Below, one piece after another: positions 1-21,145 of a stretch of DNA of 38,739 nt; position 1 is the first letter of the stretch, and the number at the start of each line of letters is the position of its first letter. The DNA comes from Oscillospiraceae bacterium (GTDB taxonomy: Bacteria; Bacillota; Clostridia; Oscillospirales; Oscillospiraceae), in NCBI GenBank assembly GCA_017624715.1, contig JAGAMN010000061.1:1-38739 (forward strand), read 5' to 3'. The translations under genes were made by a program, and so were the position numbers. Under the pieces are notes generated by a model, which saw only the letters and a program-made list of their open reading frames with translations, was not told where the DNA came from and ran no database searches.

Positions 1-1669
1 GGGAGATAAATATGCCCGTGTGATCTATCTGAAGGACTATGCTTCTTTTATTTCCGATAAGTTTGTCACCAAGCTGACGGATCAGAGCAGGAGCATGATG
101 CTGTCCATCGATATTGTTCCTGTTGCCACCGATGAAGCAGTTCGAGAGGTGGAGCGGAAGATGCTGGGTGTGGAAACCAACATCACCAACTGGCAGCGCA
201 GGCAGAATGCCAACAACAATTTCTCTGCCACCGTTCCCCACGATATGGAGCAGCAGCGCAGGGAAACCAAGGAATACATGGATGATCTCACCGGACGGGA
301 TCAGCGCATGATGCTGGCGGTGCTGACTTTGATCCACCTTGCGGATACCAAGGAACAGTTGGACGCAGACACGGATGCTCTGCTGAAAGTGGGAGCCGAC
401 CATGTATGCCAGATGGCAGTCATGCGGTATCAGCAGCTTGATGGCATGAACACCGCCCTACCCATCGGCACCCGCAAAATTGATACCTTCCGCACCATGA
501 CCACGGAAAGCCTTGCGGCCTTCATGCCCTTTAAGGTGCAGGAGATTCAGGAACCGGGCGGCATCTACTTCGGAGAAAATGCTATCTCCCGCAATCTGAT
601 CCTGTGCAACATGGAAAATCTTTTGAATCAGTCCATGATGATTTTGGGTATCCCCGGTTCCGGCAAGTCTTTCTTCGCAAAGCTGCTGATCACTTCCATC
701 GCCCTTTCTACCGATGATGACATTCTCATTGTTGACCCGGAGGGTGAATACACTCCCTTGGTGCAGGCACTGGGTGGAGCGGCGATCCGGTTTGCCATCG
801 GCGGCACAGACAGGTGGAATGCCATGTCTATGGAAAACGGCTACGGCGAAGGAAACCCTGTTGCCTTTAAGTCCCAGTATATTATGTCTTTGTTGAAACA
901 GGTTGACCCGGACGGTATCGGACCTCACCAGAAGTCCATTATTGACCGTTGCGTATCACAGGTCTACAAGGAGCAGAAGCACACGGATGTGGTTTCTACG
1001 CTCTGTACCTTCCGTGAAAAGCTGATGGAACAGCCCGAAGCCGCTGCAATGGATATTGCGCTGACCATGGAGCTTTACACTTCGGGTTCTCTGGACATCT
1101 TTGCCCATGAAACCAATGTGGACACCAGAAACCGCATTACCTCCTACGATATTCACGATCTGGGCGAGGAATTGAAGCATCCCGGTTTTGTCACTATCAC
1201 GGATGCCGTGCTTAACCGGGTCAACCATAACTGGGCCAGAGGAAAGAAAACTCACGTTATAGTGGATGAATTTCACATTGCCTATGAGAACGAATACAGC
1301 GGCAATTTCTTTACTTCCGCTTGGCGTCAGTTCCGCAAACGCAATGCCTATCCCGTGGCCATCACCCAGAATGTAGACTATCTGTTGGATGCACCGCAGG
1401 CCCGATCCATGCTCAGTAACTCCGAATTTATCGTCATGCTGAATCAGGCAGAGAACGATCAGGAGCAGCTTTCTCAGCTTCTGAACATTCCCCCGGAGCA
1501 GATGACCTATGTGAACGGAGCGGAAGCCGGTTCCGGCCTGCTTCGCTATGGCAATGCACTGGTGCCTTTTATCAACAAGTTCCCCGCTGACACGGAGCTT
1601 TACAAGCTGATCACCACCAGACCCGGCGAAGGTGTATTCGCCAAAGGGCAGGTAGATGACGGTGCATGA
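1..1669 (+). CDS. VirB4/TraE-family conjugation ATPase, 5' end outside window
   Basis: This is the energising ATPase of the ICE type IV secretion system, at the cytoplasmic face of the mating channel. The frame is open to the first base of the window, so the N-terminus is missing and about 555 C-terminal residues are seen. A Walker A motif GIPGSGKS is encoded near 647-670, a hydrophobic strand ending in DPEGEY follows near 722-750, and a Walker B-like HVIVDEFH lies near 1254-1277. The stretch ETNITNWQRRQ before the ATPase core is typical of VirB4 proteins of Gram-positive ICEs. The 3' end overlaps the next gene by 14 bp, which implies translational coupling. The family assignment is firm; the element-specific gene name is not. 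Confidence 0.93.
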   Translation, partial: GDKYARVIYLKDYASFISDKFVTKLTDQSRSMMLSIDIVPVATDEAVREVERKMLGVETNITNWQRRQNANNNFSATVPHDMEQQRRETKEYMDDLTGRDQRMMLAVLTLIHLADTKEQLDADTDALLKVGADHVCQMAVMRYQQLDGMNTALPIGTRKIDTFRTMTTESLAAFMPFKVQEIQEPGGIYFGENAISRNLILCNMENLLNQSMMILGIPGSGKSFFAKLLITSIALSTDDDILIVDPEGEYTPLVQALGGAAIRFAIGGTDRWNAMSMENGYGEGNPVAFKSQYIMSLLKQVDPDGIGPHQKSIIDRCVSQVYKEQKHTDVVSTLCTFREKLMEQPEAAAMDIALTMELYTSGSLDIFAHETNVDTRNRITSYDIHDLGEELKHPGFVTITDAVLNRVNHNWARGKKTHVIVDEFHIAYENEYSGNFFTSAWRQFRKRNAYPVAITQNVDYLLDAPQARSMLSNSEFIVMLNQAENDQEQLSQLLNIPPEQMTYVNGAEAGSGLLRYGNALVPFINKFPADTELYKLITTRPGEGVFAKGQVDDGA

Positions 1670-3602
1670 TATTAAGACGAAGGATGTTCTGCAGAACACA
1701 ATAAAGACTGTTGACCGGACTGCACTTGCTGGGCAGAGGATGAAGGATGCCTATATTCAGACCAAGCACAAGGCAGAACACAGCGTCTATTCTTCGGAAA
1801 GTAATACCGAGGAATATGCCGCCGACCAGATGACAGATGCCGCTTTTAACGTCACCCACGAAGCAGTTCATCAAGTGGATGTGCAGGGCCAGAAGATTAT
1901 CCAGGGCGCACGGCAGAAACTCCAACAGCGGCAGGCCCAAAAGGCACAGCAGCCTACGCAGGATAGTCCGCAACCGTCCCCGGATGCTCCTGCCCCAGAT
2001 GCTCCCCAGCCGGTACAGAACTCTAATATCCCACAAGCATCACAGCCCCACCGGGTATCTCCCGATGGGGCTGTCACAAAGCAGGAAGCAATTCGCAGTA
2101 AGCAGATCGCTTCCGCCAAGGCAGATTTGAAAGCAAAACGGGCATCCCAGCAAATAACGCCCTCTGCGTCAAAGATACCGCAGGCCAATGATATTCCGAC
2201 TACTCCCAGCCAAAGGAAAGTCCCTGGCAGCGTTCACACCCCAGCGGCTAAGACCATAAAGACCGTCGAGAGAACCGGCGAAGCGATCAAGCAGACCGCC
2301 AGATCCGCAGGACGAGCTACTATCAAGGCCCCCGGCAAAACCATTAAAACGGCAAGCTCCACGGTGAAGTCCGTGGAGCAGGTAGGCTCTGCTTCTGTTA
2401 AGACAGCACAGGCAACATTCAAAGCAGCCCAGAAAGCTGCCATTGAATCCGCCAAGGCTGCACAGCGCATCCGGGCAGCAGCGAAAGCAACGGCAACCAC
2501 CGTCAAAGCCCTTGCTGCAGCAGCGTCAAAAGCGGTCAAGGCAATTATTGCGGCGGTGCAGGAGTTGATCACTGCCATCGCTGCCGGTGGCTGGGTTGCC
2601 CTTTTGGTAATCGTTCTGGTTGTTATGTGTTTCGCCGGTATGATGTTTGCCAGTGACGAGGATGACACCGAGATCCTGCCCGTCACCGAGGAAGTAAAAG
2701 CCTACGAGCCGATTATCCAGCAGTATGCCAGAGAACACGGCATTGGGGATTATGTGCTTCTGATCCAAGCGGTGATGATGCAGGAATCTGGGGGCCGTGG
2801 AACAGACCCCATGCAGGCCTCCGAGTGCGGTTACAACACCCTTTATCCCCATGCTCCCGGTTCCATTCGGGACCCGGAGTATTCCATCAATGTGGGCATT
2901 CAGAATCTTGCCGATTGCCTATCGGTTGCCCAATGCGAAAGTCCCATGGATATGGATGCCATTAAACTGGCGCTGCAAGGCTACAACTATGGGCAGGGTT
3001 ATATCACATGGGCCATGAACAAGTATGGCGAATACAGCAAGGCCAATGCCGTGGAGTTCTCCATCAATGCCGCCGAACGGTACGGTTGGAGCAGTTACGG
3101 CGATATGAACTATGTCCCCCATGTGCTGCGTTACTACCCCTTGGGACAGATATTCTATGACCCGGACACCTCAACTCTAATCGTGGAAGTGGCGAGATCC
3201 CAGATTGGCAATGTGGGCGGTGAACCTTATTGGAGCTGGTACGGATTTACAGAACGGGTGGAATGGTGCGCCTGCTTTGTCAGTTGGTGCGCCAACAAAT
3301 GCAGGTATATCGATTCTGGCATTATCCCGAAATTCTCCGGTTGTATCAACGGTGTGGAGTGGTTCAAAGACCGGAGGCAATGGATCGGCAACAGCTTTGA
3401 ACCCAGCCCCGGTATGATTATCTTTTTCGACTGGGATGATGAAGATGGACAGGATGGAAATGCCGATCATGTGGGTATTGTGGAAAAGGTGGAAAACGGC
3501 AGAGTTTACACCATCGAGGGCAACACCTCCGATAGCTGCCGCCAGCGGAGCTACCCGGTGGGGTATTATCAGATCCTCGGCTACGGTGTCCCCGACTATT
3601 AA
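1656..3602 (+). CDS. Membrane-anchored bifunctional wall hydrolase (lysozyme-like plus CHAP), CwlT/orf14 type
   Basis: A 648-residue protein that probably opens peptidoglycan for the conjugation channel. Residues about 1-300 are a long, low-complexity Ala/Lys/Gln/Thr-rich region with repeated KTIKT/AAK-type segments. One strong membrane span follows at about 311-331. A lysozyme/SLT-like domain starts near 350, with its likely catalytic Glu in MMQESGG (about 377). The C-terminal CHAP or NlpC/P60-like domain has Cys538 in EWCACFVSW and His605 in DHVGIVEKV. The start overlaps the VirB4 gene. Tn916 CwlT has the same two-enzyme layout but a short N-terminus; the cytoplasmic basic extension here is unusual. 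No separate VirB6-like gene lies between it and VirB4, unlike Tn916 orf15. Confidence 0.88.
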   Translation: MTVHDIKTKDVLQNTIKTVDRTALAGQRMKDAYIQTKHKAEHSVYSSESNTEEYAADQMTDAAFNVTHEAVHQVDVQGQKIIQGARQKLQQRQAQKAQQPTQDSPQPSPDAPAPDAPQPVQNSNIPQASQPHRVSPDGAVTKQEAIRSKQIASAKADLKAKRASQQITPSASKIPQANDIPTTPSQRKVPGSVHTPAAKTIKTVERTGEAIKQTARSAGRATIKAPGKTIKTASSTVKSVEQVGSASVKTAQATFKAAQKAAIESAKAAQRIRAAAKATATTVKALAAAASKAVKAIIAAVQELITAIAAGGWVALLVIVLVVMCFAGMMFASDEDDTEILPVTEEVKAYEPIIQQYAREHGIGDYVLLIQAVMMQESGGRGTDPMQASECGYNTLYPHAPGSIRDPEYSINVGIQNLADCLSVAQCESPMDMDAIKLALQGYNYGQGYITWAMNKYGEYSKANAVEFSINAAERYGWSSYGDMNYVPHVLRYYPLGQIFYDPDTSTLIVEVARSQIGNVGGEPYWSWYGFTERVEWCACFVSWCANKCRYIDSGIIPKFSGCINGVEWFKDRRQWIGNSFEPSPGMIIFFDWDDEDGQDGNADHVGIVEKVENGRVYTIEGNTSDSCRQRSYPVGYYQILGYGVPDY

Positions 3603-3606
3603 AAAA

Positions 3607-3632: not shown

Positions 3633-3737
3633 TTCCGGTAATAATTTCTTGCAGATGTGACAATGCTCATACTCTTTGCAATATGGCTTGAACCATATTA
3701 TATTCACCCAAAGCGTAAAGCGTTTTATGTAACTAGA

Positions 3738-4292
3738 TTAACCGGCAGCGTTCAGAGATGTTCCGTCAATGAGGACAGTAGAAACACCGTCGGGGATAAT
3801 AACGAAATAAATCAAATCATCCGCATCAAATCCGCCTACAGTGACGGACTGGTAAATTGCACGGGCTACACCTGCATCGTATACTTTGGTGGTCCAGAAG
3901 TTCTTGATGAAAACACGCAAGATGAAATCTCCATCACCGCTGCTAGAACTGATCTGGAAATTAAATTTTACTTTTCCGTTGTGGCCAGAAAAGACATAAT
4001 TAGAGTAAATTGCGGTGTTCGTCGTGTTACACGTAAACGGATACTTTTTGGCAGACAGATCCCATACAGAACTGCTACCAGGAGCGGAGGTTCCGCACGG
4101 GGCTACCATATTTTCGTTTGCGCCCAGCAGTTCTGCCAGCATTGCATCGGCTTCCTCATGAGACATTTCCTGCACAGAAAGAATCTCAGCACCGGAAATT
4201 GTAACATCGGACTCTACTTCAGATGCACTTGCAGGAATGACCATAGCCAGGGTAAGCGCCATTACTAACAATAATGCAGTCATTTTTTTCAT
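3738..4292 (-). CDS. Secreted protein A, agr-linked, unknown function
   Basis: A 184-residue exported protein. The start at 4292 has a GGAGG ribosome site 8 nt upstream. Residues 1-24 are a typical signal peptide ending in a signal peptidase I site (PASA before SEVES). An acidic linker of about 45 residues follows, then a GTSAP motif, then a Ser/Asn/aromatic-rich domain that looks all-beta, with two Cys. The layout of signal peptide, acidic linker, GTSAP and beta-rich domain is shared with the next gene at 4372-4863. It lies on the agrBD strand and ends at a strong terminator, so it may be the last gene of an agr-controlled transcript. I recognise no known family; bacteriocin, matrix or adhesin-like roles are guesses only. 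Confidence 0.82.
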   Translation of the reverse strand: MKKMTALLLVMALTLAMVIPASASEVESDVTISGAEILSVQEMSHEEADAMLAELLGANENMVAPCGTSAPGSSSVWDLSAKKYPFTCNTTNTAIYSNYVFSGHNGKVKFNFQISSSSGDGDFILRVFIKNFWTTKVYDAGVARAIYQSVTVGGFDADDLIYFVIIPDGVSTVLIDGTSLNAAG

Positions 4293-4371
4293 ATGTATAC
4301 CTCCATTCTGTAATCAGTGTATTTTCTCTACTTTATCAACTATTGTGATTGAGCTGTGTGCTACTTACTGC

Positions 4372-4863
4372 TTAGCCGCCAATGATACAACCGCAAGAGA
4401 CATATCCACTGAAATTGGAGGGTGCATTAAAGCTAATGCAGAAGTAATCAGAAGCAGATGCCATCGGGAAGTAGAAGGGTTTTGCAGTATTTGCGGGGAC
4501 GGTGTAGGTAGCTTCGTTAGTGCAGCCACGAGCTACAAATGTCAGATCGGAGGAGGACTTATTGTTAATATATACATAATAACGAGTGCAACCCCAAACT
4601 AACTTGTTAAGCCACAGAGTGGAGTAGGAGGCATTGCCGGAGAAAGACAGGCTTCCCTGGGTTTCACAATTCCAACCTTCGGTGGGTGCAGAGGTACCAC
4701 GTGTCATAGACTCGGTCAGTTCAACATGAGCGCTGCACATGCTCTTAATCTGCTCATCGCTCAGAATGACGTCCGAAGTTTCATCAATGGAAGTAGCAGA
4801 GCAGGGAACGGCAATACTCAGCATCATAGCAACTGCCAGAAGCATAGACATGAACTTTTTCAT
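4372..4863 (-). CDS. Secreted protein B, agr-linked, same layout as protein A
   Basis: A 163-residue exported protein. The ATG at 4863 is chosen because AAAGGAG lies about 9 nt upstream and the protein then begins with a classic signal peptide (MKKFMSMLLAV, cleavage after PCSA). The open frame extends upstream to 5016, but that would bury the signal peptide. An acidic linker leads to MTRGTSAP, which resembles the GTSAP of protein A, followed by a Ser/Asn/Tyr-rich domain with several Cys and a Gly/Cys-rich end. About 175 nt separate it from agrD on the same strand. Function unknown. Confidence 0.82.
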   Translation of the reverse strand: MKKFMSMLLAVAMMLSIAVPCSATSIDETSDVILSDEQIKSMCSAHVELTESMTRGTSAPTEGWNCETQGSLSFSGNASYSTLWLNKLVWGCTRYYVYINNKSSSDLTFVARGCTNEATYTVPANTAKPFYFPMASASDYFCISFNAPSNFSGYVSCGCIIGG

Positions 4864-5037
4864 AAAAACAACTCCTTTCGAAATAGTATAGTTGGCTCTA
4901 GCCATCATCCATTGACCATCGCTGCTGATGGCATACAGCGGTAAAGACAAATCATTCAGATGTGCACAATTCTGGTGATTTATGGCATTTATGAACTGTT
5001 GATCAGACAGATTCATACCTCGTGCGTGTGAATGGAC

Positions 5038-5178
5038 TTAAAGTAATTCATCGGGGACATCCGGCTGATAAAGCATGAACATGCAGGTGTTACTTGTGCT
5101 GGACATGGCAAAGAACAGTGCCGTACACGCCAGTAACCCGCTCAGCTTTACAAACAGCTTTTGCATTGCAATCTTCAT
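5038..5178 (-). CDS. agrD: AgrD-like cyclic autoinducer peptide precursor (46 aa)
   Basis: The precursor of a thiolactone signal peptide, processed and exported by AgrB. The ATG at 5178 overlaps the agrB stop by 4 bp (ATGA), with AAGGAG 8 nt upstream. The N-terminal half is an amphipathic/hydrophobic leader. The core contains STSNTC with Cys32 followed by MFML, and the tail YQPDVPDELL matches the acidic, Pro-containing C-terminal recognition segment of AgrD. Aligned to staphylococcal AgrD-I, CMFML sits exactly where the thiolactone ring CDFIM lies and VPDEL where VPKEL lies. The likely signal is therefore a short N-terminal tail (TSNT or shorter) plus a five-residue ring; its exact N-terminus cannot be read from sequence. 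Short enough to be missed by gene callers. Confidence 0.9.
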   Translation of the reverse strand: MKIAMQKLFVKLSGLLACTALFFAMSSTSNTCMFMLYQPDVPDELL

Positions 5179-5768
5179 GACTGTCGCTCCTTCCTAAATG
5201 TATTTATTACTACAGCCAGCATTATCGACACACATGCCATAGTGCTACCTGCAAAATATAAGATCAACCAAGACGGGATGCTATTCTGCAAAATTAAGAG
5301 ACCTACCGCAACGGATAAGTTGAGCATACCGAGCAGTAAACTTCTTTTACGGTTTTTCTTCCTTTTTACTACATGCAACGGTTTGTTCTTTGCTTCTACT
5401 GGTGAAAAAATATACAGAATGAGCACATTAACAGCGCAAATTATTACCCATGTTCCTTTAGGGATAATGAAGAAATTAAATATAAAAAGATTGATAGCAT
5501 AGAATACAGTGAAAAGTGCAATGCAACTTCGATGAGATCCTGCATGATAACCGCCTCCCGTAAGCCGCATAGGGACAAAACCTACAAGATAAGACATCCA
5601 CCAAAAAGGTTCGCCGCCAATAAATGAGACAATAACAAGAGCCAAGATTCCTGCAATGGAGGATAACACTAGCTCTAAACCATATTTATAAACAGGGATT
5701 TGGCCTTCATGAATAATTTGATCCGATACCATTTGATTTGCTATTTTGAGAGATAGTTGTTGCAACAT
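5175..5768 (-). CDS. agrB: AgrB-like peptide-processing membrane protease
   Basis: A membrane cysteine endopeptidase that removes the AgrD tail and forms the thiolactone. It has 197 residues from the ATG at 5768, which has GGGAG upstream; a TTG further upstream is possible but less likely. About five to six membrane spans are visible. The catalytic pair is His75 and Cys82 in GGGYHAGSHRSC, with the same seven-residue spacing as His77/Cys84 of the staphylococcal enzyme. A basic loop (KRKKNRKR) precedes the last spans, as in the family. The gene overlaps agrD by 4 bp. Confidence 0.93.
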   Translation of the reverse strand: MLQQLSLKIANQMVSDQIIHEGQIPVYKYGLELVLSSIAGILALVIVSFIGGEPFWWMSYLVGFVPMRLTGGGYHAGSHRSCIALFTVFYAINLFIFNFFIIPKGTWVIICAVNVLILYIFSPVEAKNKPLHVVKRKKNRKRSLLLGMLNLSVAVGLLILQNSIPSWLILYFAGSTMACVSIMLAVVINTFRKERQS

Positions 5769-5899
5769 AGTGTAGTCACTCCCGTGTGTTCCTTGCTGCA
5801 AATGTAAATGAAACTTTTTGTATTTTCAACCCGTTAGGCATGAACGGCTTTTCTAGTGTCGCAAAATGCAGTTTGCCCACTTGAAATGATAGCGTATCT

Positions 5900-5953
5900 A
5901 TTATATAATGATAGTTATAGTAGCTTAAAATGTTCTGCCGAAATCGGTATAAT
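5900..5953. promoter_or_regulatory. AT-rich divergent control region of agrB and the XRE regulator
   Basis: The space between agrB and the XRE gene contains a rightward TATAAT at 5948-5953 and a leftward TATAAT at 5905-5900, inside an AT-rich block with short CTAT/ATAG inverted repeats. No convincing -35 box accompanies either hexamer, which fits promoters needing an activator such as the LytTR regulator encoded next door. Operator sites cannot be fixed by eye. Confidence 0.45.
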
Positions 5954-5991
5954 GTCATTGAACATGATATAAACGATTGTGGGGGGACATT

Positions 5992-6315
5992 GTGGATTTG
6001 ATTAGGGACAGGTTAGGCGATATGGTTCGAGAGAAACGGAAAAACCATGGGATCACACAGGAACGACTAGCTGAAAAGGTAAATGTTACTACTGGAATGA
6101 TTGGACAAATCGAGCGTGGAGAGACAATGCCCAGTGTAGAAACACTGGAGGCACTTATTCTCCAATTAGACATTGATCCCCAATCATTATTTTTCGGCTC
6201 AGTCCAGGGCGAGCAGGAATATGCAGAATTGTGCGCAATGATCGCCAAGATGTCTACATCACAACGGCACATTCTGCTGAAATTTGCAAAAATAATCCAA
6301 GAGGATTGCCCTTGA
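5992..6315 (+). CDS. XRE-family transcriptional regulator, divergent from agrBD
   Basis: A 107-residue DNA-binding protein with an N-terminal Cro/CI helix-turn-helix (VREKRKNHGITQERLAEKV, then TGMIGQIERGETMPS, residues about 7-60) and a short C-terminal helical tail. A GTG start at 5992 is preferred because GGGGGGA lies 5 nt upstream; a TTG at 5977 would overlap that ribosome site. Its position between agrBD and the agrA/agrC-like genes suggests it represses or tunes the agr promoters or its own. This is contextual inference. Confidence 0.85.
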   Translation: MDLIRDRLGDMVREKRKNHGITQERLAEKVNVTTGMIGQIERGETMPSVETLEALILQLDIDPQSLFFGSVQGEQEYAELCAMIAKMSTSQRHILLKFAKIIQEDCP

Positions 6316-6400
6316 TACTGAAAATGTGCTGAGTGTATCTGCTGTCGTATTTATCTGGCACAAACAACCAGTCAAGTAGCATGAACAGCATCTCATAACC

Positions 6401-6429
6401 TTGCGAGAGAATTGTTTTTTTGCTAGAAT
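6401..6429 (+). promoter_or_regulatory. Predicted sigma-A promoter of the agrA-like gene
   Basis: TTGCGA (6401-6406), a 17-bp spacer and TAGAAT (6424-6429) lie 34 nt before the agrA-like start codon, whose ribosome site is a G-rich GGTGGGGG. Confidence 0.6.
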
Positions 6430-6463
6430 ATACCCTGTCATAATAAATATAGGTGGGGGTTAT

Positions 6464-7159
6464 ATGGAGAATCTACGTATTGGCATTTGTGATGACGAGT
6501 CCATGGATTTAGCTCAAATTATGGATCTGGTAAAGCTGTATGACCATGAGAATCAGTTCATGGTAACGACTTTTCTGCATGCATCAGATTTACTGGATGC
6601 AGCCACGAAACTGGTGTTTGACATTGTGCTACTTGACATTGAAATGGAACCGCCTAATGGATATGAAATAGCTAAAAAACTGATTGAGCTTCCGGCACCG
6701 CCCGTAGTGATCTTTGCGACCAAAAGTAATGCCTATGCCTTGAAAGGGTATGGAATTGCGGTTCGTTATCTGCAAAAGCCAGTTACAAGAGATGCCTTTT
6801 ATGAAGCCATGGATGCAGCGATTGCTGATGCGATTGCCCACCGTTTGACATTTCAAATCGACAACATGCTAGTATCCATTCGTTTGCGAGATGTACAGTA
6901 TATAGAAACTTTTGGACATTACACCGTAGTGCATACCGATCAAGAGTCTTATCGCTTCCGTAGCACCTTAAAAGAAATGATGGCAAAGCTTCCCAAAGGC
7001 TATTTTGTTTCACCGCACAAAAGCTATATTGTAAACCTGGAACACATTCGGTCTGCATCAGCATCGGAGATTAGCATGAACTGCGGAGTAAAAATTCCCA
7101 TCGGACGCAAACGGATGTCGGACTTCAATGAAGCACTATATCGCTTTCTTGGGAGGTAG
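6464..7159 (+). CDS. agrA: LytTR-family response regulator, AgrA-like
   Basis: A 231-residue two-component regulator. The receiver domain has the acidic pair in CDDE (10-11), the phosphorylation site Asp58 in VLLDIEM and the conserved Lys in LQKPVT. Residues about 130-229 form a LytTR DNA-binding domain (QYIETFGHYTVVHT, then FVSPHKSYIVNLEHI). The ATG at 6464 follows a strong G-rich ribosome site; an upstream ATG at 6401 overlaps the promoter and is rejected. Two bases separate it from the kinase gene, so the two are co-translated. LytTR regulators pair with AgrC-type kinases and typically bind tandem sites upstream of agr promoters. Confidence 0.92.
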   Translation: MENLRIGICDDESMDLAQIMDLVKLYDHENQFMVTTFLHASDLLDAATKLVFDIVLLDIEMEPPNGYEIAKKLIELPAPPVVIFATKSNAYALKGYGIAVRYLQKPVTRDAFYEAMDAAIADAIAHRLTFQIDNMLVSIRLRDVQYIETFGHYTVVHTDQESYRFRSTLKEMMAKLPKGYFVSPHKSYIVNLEHIRSASASEISMNCGVKIPIGRKRMSDFNEALYRFLGR

Positions 7160-7161
7160 GC

Positions 7162-8454
7162 ATGTATATAGCATCTGAGTTGATCGGAGTTATTGCAGAG
7201 ATGCTATTAGCTCATGTATATTTTAAGAGCTTTTTCACAGCATCGGATCGTCCTTGGTGGGTATGTTTTTCCATATATGCTGTCAACGGCATAGTACTAA
7301 CACTATTATCTTTTGCTACCAATGCATCATTTCTAAGGCTGGCGTTCTGTGCTGTTACGCTAACCGGTATAGCTTGCTTTCTGTTTGATGCAAAATTAAT
7401 GCAAGCAATATTTGCAAGTATTAGCTTTTGCGGCCTTTATGTCCTAACAGAAATGATTGCGTTTGGTCTGTTTTCTGTGCTGCAAATTGACGTTCAACGC
7501 ATAATGGCCTATGGCTATTCCCGTGCAATTAGTGTCATTCTGTCACATACATTGTTTTGGCTGCTCGCATTGATAGTGCTTGCTTTGACAAAACGGAAGC
7601 GCAATGCAATCACATTACCGTTTTTATTCACGCTATCTCCCGGATACATTGCAGGAATTCTTTTAGGCTTGCTGTATTGCCGACAAGTGCTCGCCGGCAA
7701 TGATGATATGCCGTCTGCATTTCTTATTGCTGCAGCGGGTTTACTGTATCTGAACATATTGATCGTGCTATATGCAGAAAAAGTACAAAATGCCTCAGAC
7801 CAAAAGCTTCAAATGGAGCTTGCCGAAAGTCATTACACCATGCAGGAACAATATTACGAGCAATTACGTAGTGACCAAGAAGAAACCCGGGCCATGTTTC
7901 ACGATATCAACAAATATATGCAAGCTATGCGTGCTTTGGTCGCAGATGGAAATGAAAAAGAAGCTGGGCAAATGATTGAGGAAACTCAAAAGCTGTTTGG
8001 TAGCCTTGAAACCGTAGTAGATGTCGGAAACAGTGTTGTCAGTGTAATACTGAATGAATACAAATCCAGTGCAGAAGAATTGGACATTCGCTTTGATTAT
8101 GATGTGAGTGTTCCTCATAACTTAGGGGTTACTGCCGTAGATCTCTATGTCTTGTTAGGTAATACATTGGAAAATGCGATTGAGGCTTGTTGTTCGCTGC
8201 CCGAAGATCAACGGTATATTAAACTCCAACTGCGGACATACCATGATATTCTTTTTTATGAAGTCCAAAATCCATTTTCCGCTGATCACCCTAAACGGGC
8301 AAGAGGGAAAAACCATGGCTATGGCTTGAAGAATGTGAAGCGGTGCGTAGAAAAGCACAATGGACACATGAATGTAAGCCAAGATAACGGGAAATTTACA
8401 TTATCCTTGCGTCTTAATAACTGTGTTCCAGATGAACATATAATAGTACGATAG
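7162..8454 (+). CDS. agrC: AgrC-like peptide-sensing histidine kinase (GHKL ATPase)
   Basis: A 430-residue membrane kinase with about six hydrophobic spans in residues 1-205, matching the AgrC sensor domain that binds the thiolactone peptide. A coiled-coil linker follows. The phospho-acceptor is His247 in MFHDINKYMQAM. The C-terminal GHKL ATPase has an N-box (LLGNTLENAIEA) and a G-box (HGYGLKNVKRCV). No kinase A-type dimerisation domain is seen, as expected for the HPK10 group. GGGAGG, overlapping the agrA stop, supports the start. A strong terminator follows after 60 nt. Confidence 0.93.
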   Translation: MYIASELIGVIAEMLLAHVYFKSFFTASDRPWWVCFSIYAVNGIVLTLLSFATNASFLRLAFCAVTLTGIACFLFDAKLMQAIFASISFCGLYVLTEMIAFGLFSVLQIDVQRIMAYGYSRAISVILSHTLFWLLALIVLALTKRKRNAITLPFLFTLSPGYIAGILLGLLYCRQVLAGNDDMPSAFLIAAAGLLYLNILIVLYAEKVQNASDQKLQMELAESHYTMQEQYYEQLRSDQEETRAMFHDINKYMQAMRALVADGNEKEAGQMIEETQKLFGSLETVVDVGNSVVSVILNEYKSSAEELDIRFDYDVSVPHNLGVTAVDLYVLLGNTLENAIEACCSLPEDQRYIKLQLRTYHDILFYEVQNPFSADHPKRARGKNHGYGLKNVKRCVEKHNGHMNVSQDNGKFTLSLRLNNCVPDEHIIVR

Positions 8455-8513
8455 TTGCTTTTGCGCTGACTAATACACCTCCAATATAGACTGAGAACTG
8501 AATCACACATATC

Positions 8514-8547
8514 AAAAGAGCTGTTGCAGTGATGCAACAGCTCTTTT
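8514..8547 (+). terminator. Terminator of the agrAC-like transcript
   Basis: A perfect 15-bp stem (8514-8528 with 8533-8547) with a 4-nt loop. It has A residues on the left and four T residues on the right arm, so it can work in both directions. Confidence 0.88.
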
Positions 8548-8594
8548 CGTATATGTTGTTTGCGCCACCACAATGGTCGTTCATGCCCGCACAG

Positions 8595-8623
8595 TTGAAA
8601 AAGAAAAATGTGTGCTTTACAAT
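8595..8623 (+). promoter_or_regulatory. Predicted promoter of the lipoprotein/ABC operon
   Basis: TTGAAA (8595-8600), a 17-bp spacer and TACAAT (8618-8623) lie 37 nt before the lipoprotein start and just beyond the agrC terminator. The operon therefore appears to be separately transcribed. Confidence 0.6.
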
Positions 8624-8660
8624 ACAGCCAACCCGAAAAGAAAATCCAGGAGGAACTATT

Positions 8661-10154
8661 ATGAAAAACAATAAGGTGGGCAAACAAAAGCTGCTCGAAA
8701 AAAGATTACGTAGTATCACTTTACTTATACTGTGTATCGCCATGCTGACAGCCTGTGCTCCAAATCCTTCTCAGGATTATGTAACCAGCAAAAATGATGG
8801 TGCATTTGAATCCAATATTCAAGAAACAGCACCACAGCAGAATGGGGATGCGACATCTCTGACTCGTACAGGCAGCTTTACGAGTACAGACGGTAGTGTG
8901 GAGTATATTTGGAACATCGATCAAGCAATCATTGATGGCCCAATGCCGGTTGCAGAAGCTGTTCCCTACTTCTTTACACCCGAAGATGCACGGCAGATTG
9001 CAACGGTATTGTTTGGAGATGCAGTTTTCTATGATATTGGCCCTGAATCGGAGCGGTATTACTCCAGAGGAGAACTGGATCGAAAAATCAACTTGCTATC
9101 CAAATATGCTGACGAAGATACCTTGTATGCACTTGTTGGGCCATACGTGATCCATTCAGATTTACAGAAGCTGTTGAGAAGCTATAACCGCCAGTTAGAA
9201 ACAGCACCTACTGATGATCCTCGAAGTATCTGTGACTGGACTTTCAAAAAAGAAAGTTATTATGAGGATGACGGTAAATATGGCATGGGTGATGGAACCA
9301 ACGATCAGTTAAATATTGCTACAACGATTGGAAACTACAGCTACTGTATTGCTGTAGATGTGCGGAATAAAAGAGATTATCAGACAAGTACAATCACCGT
9401 CACCTTGGGAGATGGCAGCAGCTATGTAGAAAGAGAACTCCAACTTGTGGAGCTTTGCATGACCGAAAGGCCAACCCAGGAGCAAATCGATTCTGCCACA
9501 GCAGAAGCACAGCGTTCACTGGACCAAATGGGATTGGGGGAATTCGTAGTAGCGAAAGCATCTGTTTCTGTCATTGAAGCAGGTAGTGTACCCGGATATG
9601 CCATTGTGGTGAATGCGGTTCCCATCATAGAGGGAGTTCCCGGCCTTGTTGGACACACAGGCATTACTGATGCTAATACGGATCTGAATACCGAATCCTA
9701 TGATTCAACCTACCCCATGACTTATATCCGTTTTGTTTACAACGCAGAGGGGCAGTTGATCAGTTTTAGCATGCATGGACTTACTGAGGTTCAAAAAGTT
9801 AGAAATGACAATGTCGCAACTTTATCTACGGATAAACTGTTTGCAAAAGCGCAGACATACCTATCCCTTTTTGATTCTGAGAGTTTAGATGCTATCACCG
9901 GCAATAATGCGTGGGTATTGGCTATCGAAAACGATATTCCCATGGAATCAATTGTTTTCAAAGTTGAAATTACGGGTGTGCAGTATGGCCTTGCCCGCTG
10001 CGATATGGCTGATAGTGACAATGCTTTTTACTACACACCTGCGCTTCTCTTCGAAGGAACCATAAATTTCTACAACAAGAATACTGGGGCCTTGCTTGAC
10101 AGCAGCACTGTCACATTGGTTACGATAAGCGCAGTAGATGGAACGATTGTCTAA
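8661..10154 (+). CDS. Large surface lipoprotein, unknown function
   Basis: A 497-residue lipoprotein. The ATG at 8661 has an AGGAGG-type ribosome site and begins a basic, hydrophobic signal ending in a lipobox (LTAC, Cys about residue 31). The mature part is acidic, without membrane spans, and mostly alternating beta and helix. A VTSKNDG segment just after the lipobox resembles uncharacterised Firmicutes lipoproteins seen beside ABC transporters (possibly the DUF6034 group, not confirmed). It leads the operon with two permeases and an ABC ATPase, so it could be a surface sensor, ligand-binding or shielding factor. It does not resemble classical solute-binding folds. Confidence 0.88.
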   Translation: MKNNKVGKQKLLEKRLRSITLLILCIAMLTACAPNPSQDYVTSKNDGAFESNIQETAPQQNGDATSLTRTGSFTSTDGSVEYIWNIDQAIIDGPMPVAEAVPYFFTPEDARQIATVLFGDAVFYDIGPESERYYSRGELDRKINLLSKYADEDTLYALVGPYVIHSDLQKLLRSYNRQLETAPTDDPRSICDWTFKKESYYEDDGKYGMGDGTNDQLNIATTIGNYSYCIAVDVRNKRDYQTSTITVTLGDGSSYVERELQLVELCMTERPTQEQIDSATAEAQRSLDQMGLGEFVVAKASVSVIEAGSVPGYAIVVNAVPIIEGVPGLVGHTGITDANTDLNTESYDSTYPMTYIRFVYNAEGQLISFSMHGLTEVQKVRNDNVATLSTDKLFAKAQTYLSLFDSESLDAITGNNAWVLAIENDIPMESIVFKVEITGVQYGLARCDMADSDNAFYYTPALLFEGTINFYNKNTGALLDSSTVTLVTISAVDGTIV

Positions 10155-10165
10155 AGAAAAAGTGA

Positions 10166-10192
10166 TTGCACACCGGCATTGCCGGTGTGCAA
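10166..10192 (+). promoter_or_regulatory. Perfect 12-bp inverted repeat before the ABC permease genes
   Basis: Arms 10166-10177 and 10181-10192 are separated by three bases. There is no T run, so it is not a simple terminator. It may be a partial attenuator, an mRNA-stabilising hairpin, or an operator for the GntR protein encoded downstream. Confidence 0.5.
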
Positions 10193-10219
10193 CTGCAAAG
10201 GAATGGAGGAGGTGATAAT

Positions 10220-10972
10220 ATGAAGAACGGAATAGTCAGCGGGTTTCGTCAGGTGAGTAGATTGTGGATGATCGTTGTTCCACTCGCAATTATGGTACTG
10301 ATTATGACGAGTTTCGTTGATCCTCTGATTCGTACATATTGGGAACATTCGTATATCCCGAAAGGGTTTCATATTGAATTGCTAATCCAGGGACTTCGGT
10401 CAAATACTGTTTCCTCCTTCCTGCCGATTCTCGCAGCTCTGCCATTTGGCGGCTGCTTTGTGGACGATTTGAAAAGCAAATTTGCCCGGTTCTTTCTGAT
10501 CCGTAGCAGCTACCGTACATATATCGTGAGCCGCATCATCGTTGGTTTTCTGGCTGGCGGTTTGGCAATCCTTTCCGGTGCGCTGATTGCCTGGGGAACC
10601 ACTGCTGCGATACTGATTCCCATAGAACAGGAAATCGAGGGTATGGAGCCTGCGGCCATAGATGGACTCATCAAGATCTGCTTTCTACTGTTTGTCAACG
10701 GCGGCTTCTGGTCAGTTGTCGGTATGGCCATGAGTACCCTCATGGAGAGCAAGTACATTTCCTATGCGACACCCTTTGTGTTTTACTATCTGCTGGTGAT
10801 CCTATATGAACGGTACTTCTCCGATCTATTTATCATCTATCCCAAAACATGGACAGATCCCACCTCATGGCCCTTTGGCTACTGGGGTGCTGCCATCTTC
10901 TTATTGAAAATGACCCTTATCTTTGCGTTTCTCTTTTCGTTCCGGGCTAGGAGGAGGTTACAGCAGCTATGA
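10220..10972 (+). CDS. ABC-type exporter permease subunit 1
   Basis: A 250-residue integral membrane protein with about six spans and no ATP-binding motif. The ATG at 10220 follows GGAGG-TGATAAT; an upstream ATG at 10166 lies in the hairpin and is rejected. It overlaps the next gene by 4 bp (ATGA). With the second permease and the ATPase downstream it forms a likely heterodimeric ABC-2-type transporter. Neighbouring regulator and VanZ genes point to antibiotic or peptide efflux, or immunity. Substrate unknown. Confidence 0.85.
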   Translation: MKNGIVSGFRQVSRLWMIVVPLAIMVLIMTSFVDPLIRTYWEHSYIPKGFHIELLIQGLRSNTVSSFLPILAALPFGGCFVDDLKSKFARFFLIRSSYRTYIVSRIIVGFLAGGLAILSGALIAWGTTAAILIPIEQEIEGMEPAAIDGLIKICFLLFVNGGFWSVVGMAMSTLMESKYISYATPFVFYYLLVILYERYFSDLFIIYPKTWTDPTSWPFGYWGAAIFLLKMTLIFAFLFSFRARRRLQQL

Positions 10973-11865
10973 AGAAACTCAAGCAAGCCTTTTCCATCGC
11001 CGGGTACAACTTCCGGCTCTGGCGAGGCAATCCCCGAATCGTTGTGACCTTTACCCTGTCCTTTATCCTCTGCTTTCTGCTGACCGATAAGGCAGTTCGC
11101 TTTGCGGTGGAGCATAACACCACCTTGCAGCTCGTGGAGACCTTCATCTGGAGCTTTGGTGACAGTAATTCCATTCTGCTGTCCTCGGTGCTGCTGGTAA
11201 TGCTCTTTGCGGATATGCCCTTCCTGTCCTCCGGCACACCGTTCTATCTTGTTCGGACGGATAGAAGAACCTGGATCACCGGACAGGTCATTTACATCAT
11301 CGCCGCAACCTCTATTTATATGCTGTTCGTGCTGCTGTCCACGATCCTGCTTTCTATGAAGTATGCGTTCCCTGCCAATATGTGGAGCCCCACGGCGGCA
11401 ATCCTTGGCTATACCGGCTCCGGTCAACGCATAGCAATCCCTGCTCTGGTCAAGACCCTGGAAATGAGTTGGCCCTACCAGAGTATGATTTGTATCTTTT
11501 CGCTTATGTTGGGATATGCCGGGGTAATGGTTATGATTATGCTGGTATGCAATCTTCGATTTGGTCAAGCTGCAGGTGTGATTGGTGTGTTTACATTTAG
11601 CCTTTATGGAATCCTCATGCAGCCAGATACCATCCAGCTTCTCCTGCGTCTACCGGATGAAGCCTACTATATTGCCAATGTGCTGATCGGCTGGCTGTCA
11701 CCTCTAAACCATGCTACATTCCATATGCACAACTTTGGCTATGACAAACTGCCCCGGCTGTGGCAGTCCTACACGATCTTTATTTCGCTGATCGTAATGC
11801 TCTATTTCGCCGCTGTCCGTGCGGCCAAACGCTACAACTTTAACTTTACCGGAACGGAAGGATGA
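10969..11865 (+). CDS. ABC-type exporter permease subunit 2
   Basis: A 298-residue polytopic membrane protein with about six spans, starting inside the stop of the preceding permease and ending 4 nt before the ATPase start. Motifs such as DMPFLSSGTPFYLVRTDR between spans 2 and 3 resemble ABC-2 permeases of Firmicutes. It probably pairs with subunit 1 and the following ATPase. Confidence 0.85.
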   Translation: MKKLKQAFSIAGYNFRLWRGNPRIVVTFTLSFILCFLLTDKAVRFAVEHNTTLQLVETFIWSFGDSNSILLSSVLLVMLFADMPFLSSGTPFYLVRTDRRTWITGQVIYIIAATSIYMLFVLLSTILLSMKYAFPANMWSPTAAILGYTGSGQRIAIPALVKTLEMSWPYQSMICIFSLMLGYAGVMVMIMLVCNLRFGQAAGVIGVFTFSLYGILMQPDTIQLLLRLPDEAYYIANVLIGWLSPLNHATFHMHNFGYDKLPRLWQSYTIFISLIVMLYFAAVRAAKRYNFNFTGTEG

Positions 11866-11869
11866 TTTC

Positions 11870-12511
11870 ATGGATGCAATAATCGAAGTTCAAAATGTAA
11901 ATAAGTCCTTTGGCGAAGAACACGTCCTCAAGGATGTGTCCCACAGCTTTGAAACCGGCAAGATCCATGGCATTGTCGGCAATAACGGTTCCGGTAAAAC
12001 GGTTCTAATGAAGTGCATCTGCGGCTTTCTGAAGCCCGACAGCGGCACCATCTTCGTCAATCACAAGCAGGTGGGCAGGGATACGGACTTTCCGGAGGAT
12101 ATAGGCATCATCATTGAAACACCTGGATTCCTTTCTCACCTGTCTGGAACTCAAAATCTGAAAATTCTGGCTTCCTTGCAGAAGAAAGCCAATGACCATA
12201 CCATCCGGGCGGTGTTGGAACAGGTTGGCCTTGACCCGAATATGAAAAAGCCTGTGGGTAAGTATTCTCTGGGTATGCGCCAGCGGCTGGGATTTGCACA
12301 AGCATTGATGGAAGATCCCAACCTGCTGATCCTAGATGAACCCTTCAACGGCCTTGATAAGCACGGTGTTGTCCATATCCGAAACGTCATCAAGGGCCTG
12401 CGGACGGAGGGCAAGACAGTAATCCTAGCCAGCCATAACCAAGTGGACATCGACGAACTATGCGATACGGTGTGCGAGATGGATGCAGGTATTCTGGCAG
12501 TAGTAAGATAG
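11870..12511 (+). CDS. ABC transporter ATPase subunit
   Basis: A 213-residue nucleotide-binding protein with all key motifs: Walker A GNNGSGKT, signature YSLGMRQRLG, Walker B LLILDEPFNGLD and the switch His in LASHNQ. It is short and lacks a C-terminal regulatory domain, like ATPases of lantibiotic-immunity or YtrB-type exporters. The ATG at 11870 is 4 nt after the permease stop. A frame-compatible start at 11819 would overlap the permease and add residues before the normal N-terminus. Confidence 0.93.
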   Translation: MDAIIEVQNVNKSFGEEHVLKDVSHSFETGKIHGIVGNNGSGKTVLMKCICGFLKPDSGTIFVNHKQVGRDTDFPEDIGIIIETPGFLSHLSGTQNLKILASLQKKANDHTIRAVLEQVGLDPNMKKPVGKYSLGMRQRLGFAQALMEDPNLLILDEPFNGLDKHGVVHIRNVIKGLRTEGKTVILASHNQVDIDELCDTVCEMDAGILAVVR

Positions 12512-12534
12512 CAATATCTTCTGCGAGGGAAACT

Positions 12535-12828
12535 ATGGTGATACTCATTTTCAAAAATCGTGATCCAATATATCGTCAAATTGCGGAACAGATCAAAAAC
12601 CATATCATGGTAAGCCAACTAAAACCTGGGGATATGTTGCCCAGTGTCAGAAAGCTTGCTGTTGAATTACATATTGATCCCAATACAGTTCAACGTGCCT
12701 ATCTTGATTTGCGTTTCCAAGGATGGATAGACACGGTTCAGGGAAAGGGGTGCTTTGTAAGCCTTTCACCTCCGATCAGCAACAATGGGAGCAATACAAG
12801 CTATATGGAGGATAATTGCTGTGAATGA
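12535..12828 (+). CDS. GntR-family regulator, YtrA type
   Basis: A 97-residue protein consisting of a winged helix-turn-helix (DPIYRQIAEQIKNHI, then LPSVRKLAVELHIDPNTVQRAYLDL) with almost no effector domain. Short GntR proteins of the YtrA subgroup usually control ABC exporter operons and respond to cell-wall antibiotics. Here it is near the end of the operon rather than first. The start at 12535 lies 23 nt after the ATPase stop, and its end overlaps the VanZ-domain gene. Confidence 0.9.
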   Translation: MVILIFKNRDPIYRQIAEQIKNHIMVSQLKPGDMLPSVRKLAVELHIDPNTVQRAYLDLRFQGWIDTVQGKGCFVSLSPPISNNGSNTSYMEDNCCE

Positions 12829-14233
12829 ATTCATAAAAATGGTACTCAATGAACTCAGGCAAGGAATTGTGCAGGGCATTTCGGTTGCGATCATTGCTGG
12901 TGCAGTAATTGCCTATTCTTATGCCAAGCATAAAGGAAAATACAACGGAGAGAAGCCGTTTCCTTGGCGAAAAACAATTCTGATCTTTCTTTTAGCTGGC
13001 TATTTGGCAGTGTTAGGTTATGCTACGTTGTCCAGACTTGGTGGCATGGGTGCATCGGGATTTAGCTTCCATCCGTTCAGAGCATGGCTGGAAGCATGGA
13101 ACAATTTCTCTGTTACCAGTTGGGCAAATGTGCTGCTGAACATTGCAATGCTGATTCCATTTGGTATTCTTGTCCCTCTTTTGTTCCAGCGATGTAAAAA
13201 ATGGAACTATATGTTGCTGGCCAGTTTGGGGCTGGTACTCTACATTGAAACAACGCAGTATTTTACCGGTAGGGGAATTTTTGATCTTGATGACATCTTC
13301 GGAAATACTTTGGGAGCCATGATCGGCTATTTCCTGCTGATGCTTGTGTTGTCGATATTTGTCGAAAAAGAGAATCGTATTAGGAAAGTTCTGGGATACG
13401 GCCTGCTGGCGATGTTGCCGGTAGCCGCAATTTGTAGTATCTTCATGGCTTATAATCTTCAGGAATATGGTAACTTGCGAGATGCTTACACCTATCAGAT
13501 TGATACCTCAAATATAGAGTGGACGTTGGACTGTGATTTGTCGGACGAGAAGCAGGTTGTTGATATCTATAAGATGGACGTACCTTCACAAGAGGATTAT
13601 GATGCGTTGCGGGATCGCTTCGAACAAGTTCTAGGCGAGGAATTTGAGAGAACAGACTATTACGATGAATCGATTATTTACATGAATCAGTGGAGCGATG
13701 GACCATGTTCTCATTTTCTGACTGTGCAGCGCATTGATGGAAGCTATGAGCTTTCGTATATCTATGACGAAGATCCGACACCGGCAGAAACCGACAGAGA
13801 AACAATCGAGGGACTGTTGAGTGAATATGGTATCGTTATCCCTGAATCTGCAGAATTTTCTTATTTGCACTCAGGTATTCATCTGTTTACTGTAGAACAT
13901 ATTACGGATGGCGATACAATTATCGAAGGAAAAGTTAGTTGTGTCTATAACGAGGATGGTTCAATTTCCAAAATCAACAACAGTCTAATTTATTACACAT
14001 TCCACGGAGAAGAAAGCATTATTTCCGAAAATGAAGCATATGAGAAATTATGTCGAGGAGAGTTTAATGACGAGGCTGGAGTTTTTGAAAGTGCAACAGA
14101 GGTAACTGTTGCGTCATGTGATCTCGAATATCAGACTGATACCAAAGGTTTTATTCAGCCTGTATTCATATTTGAAGTGATTACAGATGTTACCGAAGAA
14201 AGCCTTACCATAATGATTCCAGCACTACAATAG
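12821..14233 (+). CDS. VanZ-domain membrane protein with large C-terminal domain
   Basis: About 470 residues from a GTG at 12821, chosen because GGAGG lies 9 nt upstream and the preceding GntR gene ends at 12828. The N-terminal half has several membrane spans and a VanZ-like domain (residues about 50-205, including WANVLLNIAMLIPFGILVPLLF and DLDDIFGNTLGAMIGYFL). A final span near 205-220 is followed by about 250 acidic residues likely outside the membrane and of no recognised family. VanZ proteins give low-level glycopeptide or lipoglycopeptide protection. The fusion to a long extracytoplasmic domain suggests a sensing or protective role for this operon. Confidence 0.85.
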   Translation: MNEFIKMVLNELRQGIVQGISVAIIAGAVIAYSYAKHKGKYNGEKPFPWRKTILIFLLAGYLAVLGYATLSRLGGMGASGFSFHPFRAWLEAWNNFSVTSWANVLLNIAMLIPFGILVPLLFQRCKKWNYMLLASLGLVLYIETTQYFTGRGIFDLDDIFGNTLGAMIGYFLLMLVLSIFVEKENRIRKVLGYGLLAMLPVAAICSIFMAYNLQEYGNLRDAYTYQIDTSNIEWTLDCDLSDEKQVVDIYKMDVPSQEDYDALRDRFEQVLGEEFERTDYYDESIIYMNQWSDGPCSHFLTVQRIDGSYELSYIYDEDPTPAETDRETIEGLLSEYGIVIPESAEFSYLHSGIHLFTVEHITDGDTIIEGKVSCVYNEDGSISKINNSLIYYTFHGEESIISENEAYEKLCRGEFNDEAGVFESATEVTVASCDLEYQTDTKGFIQPVFIFEVITDVTEESLTIMIPALQ

Positions 14234-14282
14234 CAAATAATAAAAGTTATCGTAAGTATGCTGAAGATAGGAGATTAAGTCT

Positions 14283-21059: not shown

Positions 21060-21145
21060 TGGTGCCGCTAACCGGACTCGAACCGGTACTGAGTAACCTC
21101 AGGCAGATTTTAAGTCTGCTATGTCTACCATTCCATCATAGCGGC
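21060..21145 (-). tRNA. tRNA-Leu(UAA), intact, with encoded CCA
   Basis: This 86-nt gene folds fully. The 7-bp acceptor stem (GCCGCTA with TAGCGGC) is perfect. The D stem is ATG/CAT, the anticodon stem GCAGA/TCTGC closes the loop CTTAAAA (anticodon TAA), the long variable arm CTGAG/CTCAG is typical of class II tRNA-Leu, and the T stem ACCGG/CCGGT closes TTCGAGT. CCA is encoded. It lies between int and a broken tRNA-Leu and is probably carried by the element. It differs from the broken copy at many positions, so it is not a recent duplicate. Confidence 0.93.

What the first reader, a model, noticed from the sequence alone, without database searches (positions are those of the whole stretch)
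3738..8547. Complete agr-type quorum-sensing locus as ICE cargo in the tetM slot
agrB, agrD, an AgrC-like kinase and a LytTR regulator are all present and look intact, and they lie between the conjugation genes and the orf6/orf9/orf7-like genes of a Tn916-family element. A mobile, self-contained peptide-signalling system could couple cargo expression or transfer to the density of carriers, or interfere with host agr systems. The divergent layout with an XRE regulator between the two halves differs from the one-operon staphylococcal agr.
Basis: partly seen in the sequence, partly recalled or inferred. Interest (0 to 1): 0.82.

Follow-up and report, generated by a model that had tools for sequence, protein, structure and literature searches.

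The report
Quorum-sensing circuit carried by conjugative element
A mobile DNA element in a bacterial genome carries its own complete-looking cell-to-cell signalling circuit, and the sequence suggests that this circuit switches on some of the element's own cargo genes when enough carriers are around.

Summary
Window 3600-8547 carries an intact-looking agr-type circuit (AgrB, AgrD, GHKL kinase, LytTR regulator) as two divergent operons bounded by terminators. It lies between a CD1110-family VirB4/lysozyme-CHAP transfer module and a KTR-XRE-sigma-xis-int right end that stops at a tRNA-Leu. "Tn916-family" is half right: the right end resembles Tn916, the transfer genes are CD1110-type. The element's left half is off the contig, so conjugation is inferred. 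None of 120 congeners shares the agr part at DNA level. In this genus agr loci sit near this right end far more often than chance (4 of 16) and fall in separate parts of the AgrB tree: repeated gains.

New here: a LytTR-type composite promoter (two half-sites 21 bp apart, 7 bp, TTGAAA, 17 bp, -10) occurs exactly twice in the window, before agrB and before a lipoprotein/ABC-transporter operon. The same geometry precedes agrB in four related loci and further genes in three of them. Best reading: a peptide quorum circuit that induces itself and ICE cargo. Control of transfer is unsupported. Mobile agr is known from phages; this is a new variant.

The parts
20..1669 (+). VirB4-like conjugation ATPase, CD1110 family, C-terminal part (cut by contig start)
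   Evidence: NF045971 692 bits against cut-off 325
1656..3602 (+). Lysozyme-like + CHAP transfer protein
   Evidence: PF13702, PF05257
3605..3634 (-). Terminator hairpin (followed by T6 on the minus strand) closing the leftward operon
   Evidence: sequence printed, read by eye
3738..4292 (-). Secreted protein of 184 aa (signal peptide judged by eye; beta-rich low-confidence model)
   Evidence: no Pfam family at E 0.1
4372..4863 (-). Secreted protein of 163 aa, weakly similar to the 184-aa protein (E 0.02)
5038..5178 (-). AgrD; predicted peptide ends ...STSNTCMFML before YQPDVPDELL
   Evidence: TIGR04223 41.9 bits; alignment
5175..5801 (-). AgrB peptidase (likely start ATG 5768; ATGA overlap with agrD)
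   Evidence: PF04647; alignment; start region
5824..5868 (-). LytTR-type double half-site plus -35 before agrB
5897..5915 (+). Predicted XRE operator (imperfect palindrome) over the -10 of the xre promoter 5881-5909
   Evidence: 16 of 19 to a consensus from three relatives, P 0.001; promoter
5977..6315 (+). XRE-family regulator
   Evidence: PF01381
6464..7159 (+). LytTR response regulator (likely start ATG 6464)
   Evidence: PF04397 + PF00072; sequence
7162..8454 (+). AgrC-like GHKL sensor kinase
   Evidence: PF14501; alignment
8514..8547 (+). Terminator closing xre-lytTR-agrC
8556..8623 (+). Second LytTR-type site and promoter, before the lipoprotein/ABC operon
8661..10154 (+). DUF6034 lipoprotein (likely start ATG 8661; lipobox by eye)
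   Evidence: PF19499; sequence
10166..12511 (+). Two membrane proteins (10166-10972, 10969-11865; permeases by position, no family hit) and ABC ATPase (11819-12511)
   Evidence: PF00005; TIGR03740 192 bits, below its cut-off of 310
12460..14738 (+). GntR regulator, VanZ-like protein (12785-14233), 151-aa protein (14283-14738)
   Evidence: PF00392, PF04892
14843..16212 (.). Tn916-like right-end module: KTR (14843-15016 +), XRE (15075-15425 -), sigma factor (15724-16212 +)
   Evidence: PF14205
18656..21007 (+). MazF-like protein, excisionase-like HTH (19210-19434), tyrosine integrase (19526-21007)
21060..21145 (-). tRNA-Leu(taa): likely attachment site, element/chromosome boundary
   Evidence: same tRNA beside a 97% identical integrase in G397

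Best explanation
An integrative element of the CD1110 conjugation type carries a self-contained agr-type peptide quorum circuit as cargo. AgrB processes AgrD to a thiolactone peptide (inferred from family). The GHKL kinase senses it and the LytTR regulator binds two half-sites 21 bp apart, 7 bp upstream of the -35. That induces agrB-agrD with its two secreted-protein genes (autoinduction) and the separate lipoprotein/ABC-transporter operon. The XRE protein binds a palindrome over the promoter of the sensing operon and sets its level. The lipoprotein plus two-membrane-protein ABC transporter most likely protects the envelope, like lantibiotic immunity (LanI/LanFEG); the secreted proteins are the partner product. 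Shown: genes, integrity, element context, recurrence, shared site architecture. Inferred: peptide structure, binding, direction of regulation, function of the cargo.
For: Genes and residues. Element context and tRNA-Leu boundary. GC 0.528 transfer, 0.419 agr, 0.446 ABC, 0.584 chromosome. Composite site exactly twice in 38.7 kb, 0 in 100 shuffles (the pattern was read off these two sites). Relatives-only matrix: best minus-strand position in the window is the agrB promoter (14.8 bits). G174, G335 and G148 show the site before agrB and again before other genes; TTG at exactly +7 in 5 of 7 secondary hits, P 1.3e-7 (one of the five is the window's, seen before). G252 has it before agrB. XRE operator: consensus built on G174, G335 and G282 is met in the window and not in G148, where I saw no xre. 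agr near this right end in 4 of 16 congeneric loci, expected 0.11. agr with a lipoprotein, two membrane proteins and a similar ABC ATPase also in G174, G019, G236; with the ABC set but no clear lipoprotein in G250 and G355.
Against: The window's second site scores only 10.0 bits with the relatives-only matrix; positions inside virB4 (690, 14.4), at 13509 (12.0) and 36782 (10.2) score higher. The consensus scan found no site in L035, L038, L097 or L141; it also missed L032, where the matrix found one, so it is not sensitive. A scan with the staphylococcal consensus found nothing beyond chance. The ATPase is below the lantibiotic-protection cut-off and the membrane proteins hit no family. The ABC cassette occurs in congeners without AgrB nearby, behind other regulators. 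Secreted proteins have no reliable fold match. The left half of the element is missing. G366 shares 18188-28687 at 99.98%, so binning of this contig may be wrong.
Confidence: 0.65

Rival explanations
1. The circuit works, but its main job is to control the element's own excision or transfer at high carrier density, as Rap-Phr does for ICEBs1; the ABC operon is a side target.
For: Peptide control of the ICE ICEBs1 is established (recalled; PMC6158512 and PMC8032392 seen only as search listing and start of abstract). Circuit and transfer genes are adjacent.
Against: A hairpin separates the transfer gene from the circuit. No further site in the window at up to 3 mismatches. The right end has its own XRE/sigma pair of orf9/orf7 type.
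Confidence: 0.12
2. The agr part and the ABC part are unrelated cargo that happen to be neighbours; the shared promoter element is coincidence or a duplicated stretch.
For: A terminator separates them. The cassette occurs without agr in congeners. The window pattern was read off the two sites.
Against: The same site geometry precedes further operons in G174, G335 and G148; agr with a similar ABC set recurs in other families (G236, G250).
Confidence: 0.16
3. The circuit is an ordinary resident agr system of the genus that was merely overrun by an element end.
For: agr loci exist in 15 of 121 genomes of the genus, 10 of 16 loci without a marker of my set in the fetched stretch.
Against: The nearest AgrB rows are G335 (same genus, itself beside an integrase) and two other genera (G148, G174); other congeneric agr loci are far in the tree; no DNA-level match in the rows listed for congeners; GC departs from the chromosome.
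Confidence: 0.05

Closest known systems
agr of Staphylococcus aureus (recalled) and agr-like loci of Clostridia
   Same: AgrB, AgrD, GHKL kinase and LytTR regulator; peptide with Cys and four residues before the acidic tail; paired half-sites at about a 21-bp period (S. aureus geometry recalled).
   Different: Two divergent operons with an XRE gene; on a mobile element; Rfam found only a tRNA and a pemK leader in 1-21300, no RNAIII; predicted targets are an ABC/lipoprotein operon and secreted proteins.
Phage phiCDHM1 agr3 (PMC3901668, passages read)
   Same: agr genes on a mobile element. The authors also note agr3 of C. [quoted passage not shown] they report agr cassettes in three Paenibacillus phages.
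   Different: phiCDHM1 has agrD, agrB, agrC but no response regulator; here the circuit is complete, on a conjugation-type element, with predicted targets.
ICEBs1 RapI-PhrI (recalled; PMC6158512 and PMC8032392 seen as search listing and start of abstract)
   Same: ICE with its own peptide signalling.
   Different: Different signalling family; there transfer is controlled, here cargo is the predicted target.
Lantibiotic immunity LanI + LanFEG (recalled; TIGR03740)
   Same: Lipoprotein + two membrane proteins + short ABC ATPase; the best-scoring model for the ATPase is lantibiotic protection in the three loci tested (window, G250, G174).
   Different: Score 192 against cut-off 310; lipoprotein is DUF6034; no lantibiotic biosynthesis family among the cargo proteins scanned.
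Tn916 and Tn1549/CTn-type elements (gene orders recalled)
   Same: Right end KTR-XRE-sigma-xis-int; CD1110-type VirB4 and CHAP proteins.
   Different: Mix of both; agr cargo in the slot, and no tet gene among the proteins scanned.

Membership tests
agr-type quorum-sensing system | AgrB peptidase with conserved His/Cys | tested here: met
   PF04647 105 bits; H86, C93 invariant in 4 sequences
agr-type quorum-sensing system | AgrD cyclic-lactone precursor | tested here: met
   TIGR04223 41.9 against 19 bits
agr-type quorum-sensing system | GHKL kinase and LytTR regulator, adjacent | tested here: met
   PF14501, PF04397; the staphylococcal AgrC model itself is not met, 22.5 bits against 500
agr-type quorum-sensing system | Peptide is made and sensed by this kinase | not testable with these tools
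   needs synthesis and reporter
CD1110/Tn1549-type ICE | CD1110-family VirB4 and CHAP protein | tested here: met
   NF045971 692 against 325 bits; PF05257
CD1110/Tn1549-type ICE | Relaxase, coupling protein, left end | tested here: inconclusive
   contig ends inside VirB4; the two PF03432 relaxases of this genome are on other contigs beside their own recombinase genes; coupling protein not searched
Tn916 family | orf6/orf9/orf7, xis, int right end | tested here: met
   PF14205, XRE, sigma, HTH_17, Phage_integrase; identity of the orfs with Tn916's is by order and domain, not by direct comparison
Tn916 family | Tn916-type orf16-orf13 transfer genes incl. TcpC | tested here: not met
   VirB4 is CD1110 family, followed directly by lysozyme+CHAP and then the cargo
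LanFEG lantibiotic protection | ATPase over TIGR03740 cut-off | tested here: not met
   192.2 against 309.75 bits
LytTR binding site | Two half-sites about 21 bp apart next to a -35 | tested here: met
   by sequence only; the recalled staphylococcal consensus itself was not found beyond chance

The most novel reading that the evidence does not exclude
A conjugative element uses its own private peptide signal to count carriers. At high carrier density it induces secreted proteins that act on neighbours without the element, while the co-induced lipoprotein/ABC transporter protects carriers: a quorum-gated, element-encoded attack-and-immunity module. ICEs in this bacterial order have built it repeatedly, plugging interchangeable sensor modules onto one ABC cassette.
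Probability: 0.25. Interest if true: 0.85.

Novelty: new variant of a known kind. Interest (0 to 1): 0.62.

Why it matters
Mobile agr genes were known from phages, in the case I read without a response regulator. Here a complete-looking circuit travels as cargo of a conjugation-type element, and its likely regulon can be read from promoter sequence: the same double half-site stands before the signal genes and before a cargo operon. That turns the vague idea of density-dependent cargo into a two-promoter experiment, and suggests that quorum control of cargo recurs in such elements.

Tried and rejected
AgrB by protein in plasmids gave 6 of 72,556 records, each under 30% identity. A LytTR scan with the recalled staphylococcal consensus found nothing beyond chance. 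The 17-base core of the composite site in IMG/VR gave 17 stretches, which I take for chance hits; their surroundings were not examined.

AlphaFold models without alignment: 163-aa protein pLDDT 53.6, not searched; 184-aa protein pLDDT 59.6, Foldseek best E 2.4e-3 and none at 0.001. The rows are generic beta-sandwiches, some from toxin binding domains, others from carbohydrate-binding modules; I take none as evidence of function.

Considered and rejected: fixed resident agr and pure Tn916; agr as transfer switch is kept as a rival.

Dropped before counts: of the 49 AgrB rows one (G156:C11) was never fetched, so the 46 loci cover 48 rows. The tree leaves out L104 and L109 (not given) and L098 (under 150 aa). 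In one search sixteen locus ids were skipped (copies of the window and short loci overlapped by longer ones). One search's distance test assumes uniform placement, rounded genome sizes, and ignores contig ends. In one search the marker proteins came from the window, L031, L036 and L038, so those rows partly match themselves; relaxases in L031 and L038 are confirmed by Pfam, a recombinase of L036. Several other marker hits are only 22-26% identical.
Full report
1. What is there. The contig (G000:C58) is the window itself, 38739 bases. From the left: the C-terminal part of a VirB4 ATPase of the CD1110 family (NF045971, 692 bits, cut-off 325), a lysozyme-CHAP protein, the cargo, then a right end made of a cysteine-rich KTR protein (PF14205), an XRE regulator and a sigma factor, a second XerC/D-like recombinase, a MazF-like protein with a pemK leader RNA, an excisionase-like HTH and a tyrosine integrase. 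A tRNA-Leu starts 53 bases after the integrase. The same tRNA and a 97% identical integrase stand together in congener G397. GC is 0.528 in the transfer genes, 0.419 in the agr part, 0.446 in the ABC part, 0.435 at the right end and 0.584 in the chromosome. The left half of the element is not on the contig.

2. The circuit. Leftward: agrB, agrD and two secreted-protein genes, with no terminator-like site listed between them on that strand and a hairpin with T6 at the end. Rightward: xre, LytTR regulator, GHKL kinase, closed by a 15-pair terminator at 8514-8547. AgrB, AgrD, the kinase and the regulator pass their family cut-offs and keep the residues that are invariant among relatives. So the locus is two divergent operons bounded by terminators.

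3. It is cargo and it recurs. Against 121 genomes of the genus (own included) the rows listed for window 1-20000 show matches to the ICE backbone and to the ABC cassette at 64-100%, but none longer than 61 bases in 3.7-10.3 kb (lower-scoring rows were not listed). AgrB (PF04647, 1e-8) is in 15 of 121, 16 loci. The XRE of the right end is in 12 of 121, 13 copies. Four of the 16 AgrB loci (G000, G013, G349, G363) lie within 20 kb of such a copy; expected 0.11, P 1.5e-6; leaving out the window 3 of 15, expected 0.09, P 5.6e-5. In the AgrB tree of 58 rows the window groups with loci of G335, G148 and G174 (100/96), while the other element-linked loci (G013 with G212; G349; G363 with G019; G250) stand elsewhere. 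I read this as more than one gain. At order level AgrB (1e-10) is in 38 of 295 genomes; of the 46 loci looked at, 12 hold at least one marker of my set, some at only 22-26% identity; in the genus 6 of 16. CHAP genes of this type: 48 rows in 36 of 295 genomes; 3 of the 48 rows (window, G250:C21, G212:C8) have an AgrB within 10 kb, so agr is a minority cargo.

4. The partner operon. After its own promoter comes a DUF6034 lipoprotein, two membrane proteins and an ABC ATPase, then GntR, VanZ-like and a 151-aa protein. The ATPase's best model is lantibiotic protection (TIGR03740), below cut-off, in the three loci tested. An ABC ATPase at least 38% identical lies in the same fetched stretch as AgrB in 7 of the 60 loci (window, G174, G019, G236, G250, G349, G355). 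I did not measure how common this ATPase is away from agr. In congeners the cassette is fronted by an OmpR-type regulator and kinase (G377; G412:C80), an ECF-type sigma gene (G349, G019:C62) or an M56-like membrane sensor (G007, G015); these names are by eye. A BlaI-type repressor is confirmed by Pfam in G349. Sensors look interchangeable.

5. The regulatory link. Comparing the agrB upstream regions of five loci showed a direct repeat at a 21-bp period in three relatives (L031, L147, L030). Scanning whole loci with each locus's own repeat returned, besides the agrB copy, seven secondary hits. Five of them have TTG exactly 7 bp after the second half-site: window 8556; G174 10132, before secreted protein-lipoprotein-permease-permease-ABC; G335 838, before a signal peptidase gene, and 8681; G148 899, before a radical-SAM/ketosynthase/M16/ABC-exporter cluster. 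Two do not (L031 8836, L030 10731). Chance of 5 or more of 7 is 1.3e-7; the window's one had been seen. In the window the composite TTTGCGNC-N11-CGTTCATGCC-N7-TTGAAA occurs at 5824-5865 (-) and 8559-8600 (+) only, 0 in 100 shuffles, each followed by a 17-bp spacer and TACATT or TACAAT. With a matrix from the relatives alone the agrB site is the best minus-strand position of the window (14.8 bits); the lipoprotein site gets 10.0, and a position inside virB4 14.4. G252, not used for the matrix, has the site before agrB. The consensus scan found none in L035, L038, L097 or L141, but it also missed the G252 site. A palindrome over the xre promoter matches a consensus from G174, G335 and G282 at 16 of 19 (P 0.001) and is not found in G148 (best 13 of 19, P 0.61), where I saw no xre gene.

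6. Mechanism. Most likely: peptide, kinase, LytTR regulator, double half-site, induction of the signal operon (with both secreted proteins) and of the lipoprotein/ABC operon; XRE as autorepressor of the sensing operon. Genes, order, sites and recurrence are shown; peptide chemistry, binding, sign of regulation and cargo function are inferred. The G148 relative, where the site precedes what looks like a modified-peptide cluster, and the lantibiotic-protection likeness of the ATPase favour an antimicrobial/immunity theme.

7. Known or new. agr on phages is in print, in phiCDHM1 without a response regulator (PMC3901668, passages); the same paper calls one C. difficile agr3 a possible mobile locus. 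PMC5225093 (passages) reports agr3 in RT014 genomes; the passages do not tie it to a conjugative element. PMC12940132 (passages) has cyclic-lactone clusters in gut genomes and tallies conjugative elements among its gene clusters; the passages do not say whether the two coincide, so overlap with this finding is possible there. My searches for agr on conjugative elements listed no paper whose title or abstract start describes a complete agr circuit as ICE cargo; the lists were capped and the library lacks most subscription journals. DUF6034 is in no held paper.

8. Cautions. Draft, mostly fragmented genomes of many contigs; G366:C77 is 99.98% identical to window 18188-28687, so this contig or that one may be mis-binned, or the region moved recently. 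Site discovery used few loci and was partly post hoc. On re-checking I lowered confidence from 0.68 to 0.65, because the negative scan also missed a site and higher-scoring off-target positions exist in the window.

Noticed in passing
window 18188-28687 and G366:C77 (L133): 99.98% identity over 10.5 kb, chromosome flank included, between two species-level genomes: mis-binned contig or very recent transfer.
   Followed up: partly
L030 (G148:C125) 899-8580: A LytTR-type site precedes a short Cys-rich ORF, a radical SAM protein, a ketosynthase, an M16-type peptidase and an ABC exporter: looks like an agr-controlled modified-peptide cluster. Transposase-like ORFs (by eye) lie between kinase and regulator and downstream of the exporter.
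   Followed up: partly
L130, L131, L132, L136, L137, L143, L156: DUF6034-type lipoprotein and/or permease-permease-ABC cassettes in congeneric stretches behind different regulators (OmpR pair, ECF sigma, M56-like sensor), in L130 partly as tandem copies.
   Followed up: partly
L035 (G282:C2:80000-99999): agrC-lytTR-xre downstream of a Tn916-type lysozyme/TcpC transfer module (two ORFs between), with AgrB reduced to a 100-aa piece.
   Followed up: partly
window 16400-17919: A second XerC/D-like recombinase and a 152-aa ORF sit between the sigma gene and the MazF gene; in relatives such as L136 and L138 sigma and MazF genes are close neighbours, so this may be an insertion.
   Followed up: no
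window 18205-18290: pemK leader RNA (RF02913, 43.6 bits against 34.8) upstream of the MazF/PemK gene.
   Followed up: no
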